Assembly: GCF_019175385.1 (NCBI RefSeq)
Contig: NC_083344.1
Location: 10,754,725 to 10,818,724, forward strand
Direction: 5' to 3'
DNA length: 64,000 nucleotides
Origin: Lycium barbarum
Lineage: Eukaryota > Streptophyta > Magnoliopsida > Solanales > Solanaceae
The stretch's first letter is position 1; each line of letters starts with the position of its first letter. The position numbers were made by a program, and so were the translations under genes. This document shows positions 12,251 to 53,110 of the stretch, one piece after another. The notes below the pieces were generated by a model that was not told the DNA's origin, ran no database searches, and saw only the letters and a list, made by a program, of their open reading frames with translations.

Positions 12251-12266
12251 CGCTCGAGGACGAGCG
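12251..12266 (+). promoter_or_regulatory. Pre-LTR hairpin with AGGA loop, element B
   Basis: CGCTCG-AGGA-CGAGCG forms a perfect six-base-pair stem ending 20 nt before the 3' LTR. The loop is the same as in elements A, C, D, E and F, while the stem differs from theirs. Confidence 0.8.
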
Positions 12267-12286
12267 ACTGTTTAATTGGTATCTGA

Positions 12287-14509
12287 TGTAACGACCCTTT
12301 TTGCAGTTACCGTGATTCTTCCGTTTTTTCCCTTGTTGACCAGTTCCTAAGTCTCGTTAGAACTATTTTGACTCGAAAAGATAGTTGGCAAGACTTCCTA
12401 GGCATCGGTTTGGGCTTTGAAATGTTTTCTAGAAAAATTTGGCTTTAAGCGAAAATAGTTTGACCGAGAGTTGACTTTTAGGTGAACGGATTTCATTCGG
12501 AGATCCATCGATTCCGAGAGGTTCATAGACTGATTTATGATGCATTGGTGAGACTGGTTCAACTCCCAATACATTCGGGTGCATTTTGGGACTTGGTTTG
12601 GGAATGGTTATTGAGGTTTGGGAGTTTACCTAGTCAACGGTATCTCCGTTGGGAAATTTGAGGTCACGGGTGCGTTCGTAGCGTGTTTTTACATATTTCG
12701 TTTGTTGAAATCGGACCTCGGATGATTATCGAAAATCGGGTTGGAAAGTTGGTTTTTGGCCCTCGGGAGTTGACTTAGTCAACGGTATCTCCGTTGGGAA
12801 TTTCGAGTGCGCGAATGAGTTCGTAGCATGTTTTTACCAATATCTGCATAATTGGTCTGTCAAAATCGGGTTCGGGATGAGCTTTCGGAGTTCCGGGGCG
12901 AAAAACGAAAAACAAAATCAGGGCATCTGGTGTCTGGTGACCGCTTCAGTGGACCCTTTACCGCTGGGGTGGAACCTCTACAGCGCCCTTAGGACCGCTG
13001 CAGCAGTTTGACCGTTGAAGGGTAGTGGTTGCTGCTAAAGCGGTCCCCCTAAAAACTGAAGTCGGGCCCAATATTAAAACCCTCATATCTCCCTCATTTT
13101 AAGTCCAAATGAGGCGATTTAAAAGCCAAAATTCAAGGAAATTTCATGAGGAATCCAATGGTACCATCCAATAATAATTTTGAGGTTATCTTGTCATGAA
13201 AATAGAGGAGAAACAGTGACTATGTCGGATTTGGACCTCATTTAGGATACTTTCTCTCTTGGAAGCTTAGGATGAATGGATTCTGGGTTATTTCTCAAGA
13301 TATTTCCTATGGGTAAGGTATAAATCTCATTCTTAATAGTCTCCATTAATTAATATGTCATTTTGGTTTTGTAAAACCCTTCCTCTTCCAAAAATTTCTA
13401 TGCAAAACCTATGGTTCTTCAACCCAAAATTGGGGTTTTTCATGAAAGAGTTCTAAAAACGAATTGACTTCCTAGATTGTGAATAAATGATGTTAATGTT
13501 TCTATTTATGCTAGATAATAATATATCTAGGCTTGCTAACCAATAATCTTCCATTCTAGAGTTGAAATTCTTAAATCAAAGTTAGGGTTCTTAGACCCAA
13601 ATTTGAGGGTTTTCTTAACAATAATGATTTTATTAATTAATTGATCATTCCTATGATTAAAGTAATGGGTTTTTCCCTTTTGGTATTGAATTTGGTATTT
13701 TGGTCATAAAATTCTCGTTTTGCCCTTAAGACCCGTTTTTCCTAAATTAAAGGTTGGAATTTGACCCAAATAGAAAGTAGCCAATATGAGTATTATTATT
13801 CATGGTTCATATGTGATAGATTTTGGTTATTTGGAGACGCTTCAAAAGACAAGGTAACGTGTGGGTTCGTGGCACCTGTTCGGCTGCCAGGTAGGTTATG
13901 GCTACCTTTTCTGGTAGATTCCGATTACTTTCCCATATACGTGTATTAGAAGGAATGGAGAATGCATGTATATGAATTGGATATTTGGGATGGAATCCTA
14001 GGATGGTATTGATGTGATTGTGTGTTTCGGCTTGTGGCCTTTAGATCCCTTAGGTTGTTTGATGTGGTTTTTCTTGAACATCGGTGGATTTATGTGACTT
14101 GGGAGTACCAGATGGAACTTATTTGTGCTAAATGATTAAAATTTCCTGTAATATGTGATTACTTGTGTTATGCCATTATTAGTGAAATCTAATGGATAAA
14201 TGGGAGGATAAAATGTACCAACGATTGTGACTGAATTCTAATTGAGTTGTGACGAAGGATTTTGAGTGTAGGGTGAGATTCGTGTTCTAAGCTAATAAGC
14301 TAATTTAAGGAAGTGGTAATAATGTATATCGATCGATTGACCTATTATGTGTTGGGACTAGCCACCCTGTTGTGTTGTGTTAGACTGTTCTATTATGTTG
14401 GCTTGATGCCATAAGTTGTTGATAGAGATTAGATCCTGTTATCCGTCTTGGTTCGGATATATTTTTGACATACCCACTGTTGGTATTGTTATATAGATAC
14501 ATTGTTGGC
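12287..14509 (+). repeat. 3' LTR of element B, left part
   Basis: Starts TGTAACGACCC and runs parallel to 5971-8210 with scattered differences. It is interrupted in the hairpin-unit array by element D; TTGGC at 14505-14509 is one copy of D's target duplication. Confidence 0.9.
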
Positions 14510-16479
14510 TGTTACACCTCGAAAATTTCCCCGTGAACGTACAATGAATAGACTAACGAAGAATACGAGTATACAATATTTTAATAAGAAGGGAACAACG
14601 TTTGACAACCCTAAGTAAGATTTCAAAGGAAATTGCAATAAGAGATAGGTTATGCTTCACAATGACTATTTATAGGCTCTGGAAATGTGAAAGCTGCAGG
14701 TTAGCACTTTGGCCTCGTCGATGAAATACGGACCGTAAAATGGTTTACGGCCCGTAAACTGCCTTGTCGTCTTTCGACTTCCTAAACTTCAACTTTCTAC
14801 CAAATGTTCGAATGGTTAAATACGACTTGAAATACGGACCGTAAACTGAAATACGGCCCGCAAACTGAGCTCGTAAATCACCATGTTCTCAGACTGCCTT
14901 TCTGGTTCTGTTATGCTTTAATACGCCCATGAAATACGGACCGTAAACTGAAATATGACCCGTAAACTGATTTTACGACCACTGTGCACTTTCAACTACT
15001 GTTCATTTCGAATCAGATTTTAAGTCATTAAAAAGGAGACCCACGCTCATTAACTCATTTCATTTCCACACCACTTCTCTCTAGAAACCTCTAGAATATT
15101 CTCCACTCTTCATCTACAAGAAAACAAAGGAAATCAAAGATCAATATCAAGAATTCAAGTGAATCAAGTGTGTGAAACTCATCAAAGTTCATCCAAGTTA
15201 AGAAATTTCAGGAGAAGTAAACTAGGGTTTTGGTGCAAGAAGAGTAATACCACTTAAGGCTTGTTCCTACAACCTCTAAGGTAAGTTTTATGGTATTTAT
15301 ATGTTACTTAGGGTATGGAAGAGTTGGAACACTTGGATTATAGAAAGATATGAGAAATGGATCATGAAAGTGTGAATAGTAGCATTGTTGAGTAAAGGTT
15401 TGAATTGAGCCATGATCATTGATAACTTGTGATTATAAAAATGTTATGAATGACATTTAGACCATGGAATGAGTATTATATGTGAGGAAACACGATAATG
15501 AGCTATAACCATAAATGTGGAGAAATTGAAGAGAAATGGTGAATTGTGGTAAATGTATATAAATGATGATTGTCGTTTGCAACATTGTGAATGTTGTTGT
15601 GAGCATTTGGGAGCTGATATAGAATGTGGTGAAAGTAGTAGAAACAAAGGAAATACTGCCCAATTTTCTCTAGCGTTAGTAAGTCCGTTCTTATAATTAT
15701 TAGCTAATGTCGATACGAATTCTCTTGAAGGCAGAACGTGTGCATTGAAGGAGAACGATCAAGCGGTAGAATAGCTAAAGGAAAAGGTATGTAAGGCTAG
15801 TACCTTCTTTCTAAGGCATGAACCCTATAGTATGATGTCTCCTCCTTCTCCATGATTTTCCTACGTATCAACAAAAAATTATGAGTCTATGATTATAAAG
15901 AGTATCTCGAGATAACGGAAAGAGGCTTGTTATGAGCACGATAGCGAAGATGATAAGCTTAAGTCTAAAGATTCTAGAGTTCAGGATATAATGTTTATAC
16001 AAATCTATCGACATTAACTACGATCTATTGGTGATGCTTGATGTATACACTCACCTTATATACTAATTCCTTCAAGGTGAGGCAGAATACCTATGAATGC
16101 TCCATAATGTAATCGCGGGTTCTCGACGGTACGTCACCCCGACATTGTTATAGATTGTCCATAAGCCTTAATGTATGTCCTATGACCAATGTTCCGAGAA
16201 ACTACGAGTCTATGTTCATAAGGATTTCATATGAGATAAAGGTAAGAGATACGCTATAGAAATAATAATGGAAATGATGAGCTCAAGTCCAAAGTTTATA
16301 AAGACTATCATACGATACTTATACGAAATGCACTCTACGAATATGATATGGTCTTTCATAGATTGTCTTTAAATTTAAATGTATACCTTAATGAAAGGTT
16401 ACGATACGTTTATAAGATGAATGTGATGACGATGATGATGATGAGATATGCTGATCCTTGTATGATGTATACGATATGG

Positions 16480-16620
16480 TCGAGCCACTACGTGGCCGAA
16501 TACGGAAAATATGTATGTGATATTGTCGAGCCACTATGTGGCCTAATACGGATACCGTCGAGCCACTACGTGGCCGAATACGGTTATTGTCGAGCCCCTA
16601 CGTGGTCGAATACGGATAAT
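16480..16620 (+). repeat. Tandem repeat in D 5' LTR, short GC-rich units
   Basis: About five degenerate units built on GAGCCACTACGTGGCCGAATA, some separated by TATTGT or ACCGTC spacers. ACTACGTGGC is close to palindromic. The matching array in the 3' LTR is at 21780-21950. Confidence 0.8.
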
Positions 16621-52600: not shown

Positions 52601-52913
52601 GTTTGTGGGGCCTATTGATCGCGTTCAGATTTGCGGTTTTATCAAATCAGAGAATTCGAGCAAAGCAATTCGTTCAAGGATCAGTTGTGAGGGAAATTCA
52701 AATGCAGAGATATGAGAATTGGAGCTTGAGCTATGTTTGGAGAGTAGGAGACTAGTAAAGTGAGCGATTAGGTTTTTCTGAATGTTACACTCAATAAGGG
52801 TGTCATGCGATGTGAGAAGGAGGGAAAGTGAGCCCGAGGTGTATTGGCCTATTTGAGACTATCCGTTGTATTGATCCTCTATTTTATGAGTTAGTTTTTC
52901 ACTAGGCCGGTCA

Positions 52914-52980
52914 GGTGCTCATCCGGTCTTCCATGTTTCTCTATTGCAGAAGTACCATTCTGATAGTTCCTGTATCATTA
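52914..52980 (+). pseudogene. Fossil of integrase C-terminus in element F
   Basis: Reads GAHPVFHVSLLQKYHSDSS, matching the VHPVFHVSMLRKC block that follows the GPY/F module in elements A and E. Flanking frames are broken. It is a short relic, useful only as evidence of ancestry. Confidence 0.75.
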
Positions 52981-53096
52981 ATTGGTACTCAGTTCTAAGG
53001 GATGAGAATCCTTCCTAGTAGGAGGATCTAGATATGTGTTTGAGATATCCCCAGTTTTTGCGGGCTCAGGTATCTTTCCCCGTTCTTTTCCTTGTC

Positions 53097-53110
53097 GCTC
53101 GAGGACGAGC
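53097..53110 (+). promoter_or_regulatory. Pre-LTR hairpin with AGGA loop, element F
   Basis: GCTCG-AGGA-CGAGC, five base pairs, 21 nt before the 3' LTR. The next pair outward is C/A, unlike the C-G of element B. Confidence 0.8.

What the first reader, a model, noticed from the sequence alone, without database searches (positions are those of the whole stretch)
12251..53110. A hairpin with a fixed AGGA loop and covarying stems sits just before the 3' LTR in six elements from at least three lineages
Seen directly: A (30410-30429), D (19782-19801) and E (41382-41401, minus) have AACATTCG-AGGA-CGAATGTT; B (12251-12266) has CGCTCG-AGGA-CGAGCG; F (53097-53110) has GCTCG-AGGA-CGAGC; C (31911-31930, minus), an Athila/Tat-type element, has TTTGCTTG-AGGA-CAAGCAAA. 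Distance to the LTR is 16-21 nt in all cases. The stems differ at most positions between families yet remain complementary, while the loop is invariant. That is the signature of a conserved RNA (or single-strand DNA) structure and not of shared sequence. Inference: it may position RNase H cleavage at the polypurine tract, act in packaging or 3' processing, or mark the end of pol for dimerisation. It is kept even in non-coding elements, so it probably acts in cis. I do not know whether this has been described.
Basis: partly seen in the sequence, partly recalled or inferred. Interest (0 to 1): 0.88.

Follow-up and report, generated by a model that had tools for sequence, protein, structure and literature searches.

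The report
Conserved RNA hairpin before retrotransposon PPTs
Several families of jumping genes in this plant (Ty3/gypsy LTR retrotransposons) keep a small hairpin with the same AGGA loop, but different self-complementary stems, just before the site where second-strand DNA copying starts, so the folded shape rather than the letters seems to matter for their replication.

Summary
All six hairpins are where stated. A scan adds a seventh, with another stem, inside element C before its own purine-rich tract. In the genome the cassette (hairpin, typically 15-21 nt, LTR) recurs in chromoviruses, Athila-type elements, non-coding elements and a TRIM whose 73-95 nt between tRNA site and LTR hold the hairpin and PPT. 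Across 18 family representatives 7 of 8 stem pairs change on both sides (covariation 0.815; shuffles 0.211, slid stems at most 0.176) while the G-AGGA-C core is fixed. Sites fetched by LTR-start sequence alone show the hairpin, intact or decayed, in 20 of 20 and 19 of 19; GAGGAC is absent from 20 of 20 copia controls. Within one family CpG pairs 2 and 5 decay without covariation. Best reading: a cis-acting RNA hairpin that helps define the plus-strand primer, possibly by stalling reverse transcriptase so that RNase H sits at the PPT/U3 junction. Structure well supported, function inferred. Ten paper searches showed no description in Ty3/gypsy; a different inverted repeat around the PPT is published for copia, and an extra PPT for Athila4/Calypso. 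New variant of a known kind.

The parts
30410..30429 (+). Hairpin A, AACATTCG-AGGA-CGAATGTT, 8 bp, chromovirus
   Evidence: RNA fold -7.0 kcal/mol, z -4.4; Chromo domain upstream
30430..30445 (+). PPT region of A (CCTAAAGGGGAAGGAA), then LTR start TGTTACATC at 30446
   Evidence: LTR start inferred by likeness to D and E, no 5' LTR found for A
19782..19801 (+). Hairpin D, same stem as A
19802..19821 (+). PPT region of D; 3' LTR starts at 19822
41381..41402 (-). Hairpin E, same stem plus one pair (9 bp); chromovirus with gag, protease, RNase H, integrase and chromodomain
41365..41380 (-). PPT region of E; 3' LTR 38963-41364
12250..12267 (+). Hairpin B, TCGCTCG-AGGA-CGAGCGA, 7 bp, non-coding element, PBS TGGTATCAGAGCC at 9958
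   Evidence: fold -10.8 kcal/mol, z -4.3
12268..12286 (+). Spacer of B; not a purine run; ends TTGGTATCTGA and abuts the LTR (TGTAACGACC at 12287)
53097..53110 (+). Hairpin F, GCTCG-AGGA-CGAGC, 5 bp
   Evidence: fold z only -1.9
53111..53131 (+). Spacer of F, not a purine run, before LTR TGTAATGACC at 53132
31911..31930 (-). Hairpin C, TTTGCTTG-AGGA-CAAGCAAA, Athila-type element, terminal cassette
31892..31910 (-). PPT region of C (GACTTTAAGTTGAGGGTGT), then LTR TGATGTGCC from 31891
33634..33651 (-).
   Evidence: fold -9.8 kcal/mol, z -3.5
33615..33632 (-). Internal PPT-like tract behind hairpin G (TGTTTGTAGTTGGGGGTG)

Best explanation
A cis-acting RNA hairpin of plant Ty3/gypsy retrotransposons that forms one unit with the polypurine tract and helps make the plus-strand primer. 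SHOWN (by sequence): a 5-9 bp stem closed by G-C with a near-invariant AGGA loop lies 15-21 nt upstream of the 3' LTR in the family representatives measured; stems covary; it accompanies internal PPTs; it is kept in elements without genes. INFERRED: on the genomic RNA, reverse transcriptase copying the minus strand crosses U3 and the PPT and then meets the foot of the hairpin; pausing there would leave its RNase H site near the PPT/U3 junction, favouring one clean cut. The conserved loop could also hold an enzyme or Gag. The stalling step is the most speculative part (about 0.35).
For: Covariation: 18 representatives, 89.6% of cells paired, 7 of 8 pairs changed on both sides, score 0.815 against 0.211 (0 of 500 shuffles as high) and slid stems at most 0.176. 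Subset of 13 (without L122 and four of the six B/F-type rows): 0.938 against 0.228. Unselected B/F copies, placed only by distance to the LTR: 87.2% of cells paired against 81.9, score 0.393 against 0.275, slid at most 0.216. Position: foot to LTR 15-21 nt, mean about 18 (18 sites; entered by hand, checked, where E is one lower and L196 needs its G-U pair counted), near the 17-18 nt between HIV-1 RT active sites (PMC5766924, passage). PPT coupling: 2,947 Athila-type PPT+GTCCTC sites against 20 for the reversed pattern; among 99 of the 100 listed (one simple-repeat hit dropped, classes set by eye) 23 pairs lie within 2 kb, all same-strand, and 18 of 18 mixed pairs run internal to terminal. Minimal element: in TRIM copies PBS to LTR is 73-95 nt (7 of 8 PBS sites measured) and holds the hairpin; 142 exact stem copies genome-wide, reversed control 0. 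Copia control: GAGGAC in 0 of 20.
Against: No biochemical test. The only Ty3 RT figure seen is about 13 bp between active sites (PMC5371799, passage), shorter than 15-21 nt. Loop-to-LTR distance (sd 1.3) is no more variable than foot-to-LTR distance (sd 1.7), so the data do not favour a foot-anchored stall. Some chromovirus copies have long G-runs that widen the gap (L165, L171, L181, L182). B/F elements have the hairpin but no purine run. In the 111-nt fold of junction E the whole structure is only weakly better than shuffles (z -1.8, 8 of 200). A free scan finds some 4-nt-loop hairpin with at least 5 of 7 standard pairs within 75 nt in 20 of 20 copia copies too, and several of their best hairpins lie 16-23 nt from the LTR. 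Retention in TRIMs fits packaging equally well. Most A1 rows from outside the window were picked from lists in which I could see the stem. The two count measures (pairs with both-side change, further pair types) do not clearly exceed shuffles.
Confidence: 0.6

Rival explanations
1. Packaging, dimerisation or Gag-recognition signal: the AGGA loop on a variable stem is bound by Gag or reverse transcriptase (AGGA fits the AGNN tetraloop class; recalled), and lying next to the PPT is secondary.
For: Loop and closing pair are the conserved part; kept in TRIMs that must be packaged in trans; loop-to-LTR distance is at least as constant as foot-to-LTR distance.
Against: All 11 sites with stem >=6 in 264 kb stand at a PPT position (one exception under the filter), and the internal copies listed carry a PPT (the pattern required one).
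Confidence: 0.2
2. A DNA-level signal: the hairpin acts in single-stranded minus-strand DNA or as a cruciform, for example to end plus-strand synthesis or guide integrase.
For: Perfect pairing serves DNA as well as RNA; one-arm changes show no excess of sense G-U over antisense G-U beyond expectation (16 against 10 at pair 2, expected 14.8 and 10.5; 17 against 12 at pair 5, expected 17.9 and 12.4).
Against: The site lies outside the LTR, upstream of the plus-strand start, so it is not part of the ends that integrase handles (established retrotransposon biology, recalled).
Confidence: 0.1
3. Coding constraint: GAGGAC is the ED of a conserved polyprotein end (..LEDK..), and the hairpin is a by-product.
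For: In L120 the chromovirus ORF ends inside the hairpin (GAT CCT TGA GGA C); LEDK tails occur in proteins of Carex, Melia, Papaver and Chenopodium.
Against: In E the ORF ends about 170 nt upstream; B and F show no ORF of 90 aa or more over the site and the TRIM interval between PBS and LTR is only 73-95 nt; coding does not explain complementary third positions or 38 of 101 relatives ending in Pro.
Confidence: 0.03
4. Shared ancestry plus neutral decay: one ancestral hairpin whose C-G pairs became T-A by methylation decay of both arms, without selection on structure.
For: Pairs 2 and 5 of B/F behave so: Watson-Crick 66 against 66.8 expected and 66 against 64.7; decayed copies are common.
Against: Counted from the loop, pairs 3 (UA/GC), 4 (UA/CG/AU), 5 (AU/GC/CG) and 6 (CG/UA/GC/AU) change by transversion on both sides between families, which deamination cannot make; pair 4 of B/F is Watson-Crick in 90 of 97 against 52.8 expected.
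Confidence: 0.05

Closest known systems
[quoted passage not shown] 2010, PMC2829016; abstract, passages and section 8 seen)
   Same: A conserved secondary structure tied to the PPT in plant LTR retrotransposons, proposed there to help RNase H form the primer.
   Different: There the left arm borders the PPT and the right arm lies inside the LTR, with the PPT in the loop, and upstream PPTs lack it. Here both arms are upstream of the PPT, the loop is AGGA, internal PPTs have it, and the hosts are Ty3/gypsy.
Extra PPT in Athila4 and Calypso linkers (stated in PMC2829016) and PPTa of Bongo3 (PMC3605345; passages seen)
   Same: Internal PPT between the genes and the terminal PPT, as in element C.
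   Different: No hairpin is mentioned in the passages seen; here the internal PPTs examined carry their own AGGA hairpin.
U-box/T-box or TCTT upstream of PPTs of retroviruses, Ty1 and fission-yeast Tf elements (PMC10085805; passages seen)
   Same: A short element directly upstream of the PPT linked to plus-strand priming.
   Different: A linear T-rich sequence, not a covarying hairpin.
TRIM elements and retrozymes (PMC4918200; passages seen)
   Same: Tiny non-autonomous elements that keep PBS and PPT.
   Different: No hairpin upstream of the PPT is mentioned in the passages seen; no Rfam family, hammerhead included, was matched in the window or L119-L124.

Membership tests
Copia/Sirevirus PPT inverted repeat | Right arm inside the 3' LTR, PPT in the loop | tested here: not met
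   Both arms end 15-21 nt upstream of the LTR in the 18 sites measured
Copia/Sirevirus PPT inverted repeat | Structure adjoins the PPT | tested here: met
Plant chromovirus (elements A, E; D by homology) | Chromodomain C-terminal to integrase | tested here: met
   for E and A (Chromo E-values 4.3e-05 and 0.00046; 23.8 and 20.5 bits, just under Pfam's cut-off of 25.1); not tested for D
Plant chromovirus (elements D, E) | tRNA-iMet PBS | tested here: met
   TGGTATCAGAGC in E; D has the near-match TGGTATTAGAGC; tRNA identity recalled. B has it too
Athila/Tat (element C) | tRNA-Asp-type PBS | tested here: met
   TGGCGCCGCTGCCGGGGA; identity recalled, tRNA-Asp for this group in PMC1142308 (passage)
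Athila/Tat (element C) | Athila-type reverse transcriptase | not tested
   One 324-aa ORF without a Pfam match; pol was not looked for further
TRIM (L119, L186-L191) | Short LTRs, short non-coding internal domain with PBS and PPT | tested here: met
   LTR start to PBS 174-206 nt (4 sites), PBS to LTR 73-95 nt (7 of 8 sites); L185 showed no PBS match
Known Rfam RNA family | Match at gathering score | tested here: not met
   0 matches in window and L119-L124
AGNN tetraloop (recalled) | Loop sequence AGNN | tested here: met
   AGGA in all 18 A1 rows, which were chosen to contain GAGGAC; the fold itself could not be tested

The most novel reading that the evidence does not exclude
The AGGA hairpin is an ancient, shared plus-strand origin signal of plant Ty3/gypsy elements that sets the primer end by its position and can work without a polypurine run: the B/F families keep the hairpin at the usual distance although the letters before their LTR are not purine-rich and resemble the start of the tRNA-iMet site (TTGGTATCTGA in B against TTGGTATCAGA).
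Probability: 0.3. Interest if true: 0.87.

Novelty: new variant of a known kind. Interest (0 to 1): 0.72.

Why it matters
How reverse transcriptase picks one purine tract and one cut site for the plus-strand primer is an old question. A structure kept across several lineages, and kept in an element with almost nothing else, gives a direct handle on it, and a lineage without a purine run is a natural test. A 2013 paper called for a systematic search for PPT hairpins beyond Sireviruses (PMC3601003, passage). The core and its spacing could also help to find 3' ends of Ty3/gypsy elements in genome annotation.

Tried and rejected
Chance: rejected. Coding constraint: rejected for non-coding families. 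CpG decay alone: explains within-family variation at pairs 2 and 5 but not the family-level transversions. A free hairpin scan as a test: rejected as uninformative, since copia copies also give 5 or more of 7 pairs somewhere. Viral contigs: 89 and 1 pattern hits were not followed up and are presumably chance; the chromodomain profile found no relative there. Bacterial genome collection: 9 chromovirus-like contigs, probably eukaryotic contamination; 0 of 9 show an AGGA hairpin with stem >=7 in the downstream letters held. De novo LTR pairs in the 20 random pieces gave too few whole elements to count: L019 has the hairpin, L010 gave an old remnant, and L027, copia-like by its PPT, has none. L123 (stem with one mismatch beside an H+-PPase-like ORF) was dropped as unproven. 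Two repeated GTCCTC+PPT families without a stem, seen in the listing, were set aside unexamined. An unselected Athila set could not be made because the machine did not answer. Other plant genomes were not searchable, so cross-species support is only at protein level.
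Full report
WHAT IS THERE. The window is a 64-kb piece of a 1.67-Gb plant genome packed with nested LTR retrotransposons. All six hairpins exist as described. E is a chromovirus (gag, protease, RNase H, integrase, SH3_Tf2-1, chromodomain); A also has the chromodomain; A, D and E are homologous. 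B has about 4-kb LTRs (interrupted by D), a tRNA-iMet-type PBS at 9958 and no long ORF; F is related to it. C has a tRNA-Asp-type PBS and LTRs near 30679-31891 and 35152-36343. The exhaustive scan found a seventh hairpin, G, with a different stem in front of its own G-rich tract, about 1.7 kb upstream of hairpin C in the same element.

MORE THAN CHANCE. In 264 kb (window plus 20 widely spaced 10-kb pieces) AGGA, with its complement, is the top tetraloop for stems of 5, 6 and 7 or more (18 against a mean of 2.08; 11 against 0.77; 10 against 0.37), and all 11 with stem >=6 lie at a PPT position. The laxer filter adds one AGGA hairpin away from a PPT. The exact 20-mer of A occurs 15,258 + 15,308 times in the genome, its reversed control 0. 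PPT+GTCCTC patterns are enriched over reversed controls: 25,574 against 380, 6,746 against 858, 2,947 against 20, 641 against 12; the two patterns that exclude the commonest stem letters are less so: 1,395 against 210 and 255 against 147. Of the 100 listed sites, 84 have at least 5 of 7 Watson-Crick pairs and 16 do not; the control predicts about 13% background.

SITES TAKEN WITHOUT REGARD TO THE HAIRPIN. With LTR-start patterns only, 20 B/F-type sites (every fifth of 100 listed of 1,430) have at least 5 of 7 standard pairs at the fixed position in 20 of 20 and at least 5 Watson-Crick pairs in 17; GAGGAC is intact in 10, AGGA in 16, and L135, L139 and L142 have GGGA. Of 20 chromovirus sites (from 100 listed of 3,223) 19 are usable (one fetch mistyped). 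All 19 show the AACATTCG/CGAATGTT-type site; in L170 a 3-nt deletion removes the 4-nt loop. GAGGAC is intact in 13, AGGA is the loop in 15 (by eye). In the copia control (first 20 of 35 places) GAGGAC occurs in 0 of 20; these 20 are few independent families, and weak hairpins with other loops can be drawn in them.

COVARIATION. Eighteen family representatives align without gaps. 89.6% of cells pair; 7 of 8 pairs have changes on both sides; covariation 0.815 against 0.211 for shuffles (0 of 500 as high) and at most 0.176 for slid stems. A subset of 13 gives 0.938 against 0.228. The unselected B/F set gives 87.2% paired against 81.9 and 0.393 against 0.275 (0 of 500 each), slid at most 0.216. 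Two count measures are weaker: the number of pairs with both-side change was reached by 37, 77 and 46 of 500 shuffles, and the number of pair types by 226, 168 and 76. Against: within B/F (97 of the 100 strings) pairs 2 and 5, which are CpG sites, show no covariation, whereas pair 4 (90 Watson-Crick against 52.8 expected), pair 7 (80 against 64.7) and, less, pair 6 (67 against 58.5) do. So copies decay after insertion, and the compensation lies mainly between families and subfamilies. Ten single 20-nt hairpins fold at -7 to -11.1 kcal/mol with z -1.9 (F) to -4.4 (A).

THE CASSETTE TRAVELS WITH THE PPT. Foot-to-LTR distance is 15-21 nt over 18 sites. In Athila-type elements two stem classes occur: of 99 listed sites, 23 pairs lie within 2 kb, all on the same strand, and all 18 mixed pairs have the GCAGTG class upstream of the GCTTG class, with three cassettes in some elements. 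L122 holds two cassettes 129 nt apart. A TRIM family (142 exact stem copies) has PBS, 39-56 nt to the hairpin, then PPT and LTR, with 73-95 nt from PBS to LTR.

CODING OVERLAP AND OTHER SPECIES. In L120 the chromovirus ORF stops inside the hairpin (GAT CCT TGA GGA C). Of 120 listed relatives (697 found), 101 show the chromodomain end; 38 of these end in Pro, as L120 does, and LEDK, which CTT GAG GAC AAG would encode, is seen in seven listed tails, including Carex, Papaver, Melia and Chenopodium proteins. The codons are inferred; this is only a hint that the core is old. Nine chromovirus-like contigs from the bacterial collection lack it.

MECHANISM. Shown: position, pairing, loop conservation, PPT association, retention without genes. 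Inferred: help in forming the plus-strand primer. The stall version fits HIV-1 spacing (17-18 nt, PMC5766924 passage) better than the Ty3 RT estimate (about 13 bp, PMC5371799 passage), and the spacing data do not single out the foot over the loop. Packaging is the main rival.

LITERATURE. Ten paper searches (listings seen) and passages of 15 papers showed no AGGA hairpin in Ty3/gypsy. Closest: the copia inverted repeat (PMC2829016) and the call for a wider search (PMC3601003). Most subscription journals, and figures, were not searchable, so 'undescribed' is not proven.

Noticed in passing
window 12276-12286 and 53121-53131; L124-L144: B/F-type elements have no purine run before the LTR; the letters there resemble the start of the tRNA-iMet site TTGGTATCAGA (10 of 11 places in B, TTGGTATCTGA; 9 of 11 in F).
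   Followed up: partly
window 12229-12249; many of L125-L144: A C/T-rich stretch lies directly upstream of the B/F hairpin on the sense strand.
   Followed up: no
window 41340-41450 minus; several of L165-L184: In some chromovirus copies a CCCC stretch upstream of the hairpin could pair with the G-run of the PPT, enclosing the hairpin in a longer stem (predicted fold of E).
   Followed up: partly
L165, L171, L181, L182: Very long G-runs in the PPT of some copies, probably slippage.
   Followed up: no
C1:12333875-12335664; window 31911-33651: Athila-type elements carry two or three hairpin+PPT cassettes in fixed order, about 0.7, 1.0 and 1.4-1.7 kb apart.
   Followed up: yes
L122, sense offsets 2829 and 2958: Two cassettes 129 nt apart, each followed by TGATG..: possibly a shifted LTR start.
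   Followed up: no
L207:1847-3136: Pfam Transposase_32 ORF pieces end about 60 nt upstream of the internal cassette.
   Followed up: partly
L145-L164: Some copia copies have weak AT-rich hairpins with other loops 16-23 nt before the LTR.
   Followed up: no
   Followed up: no
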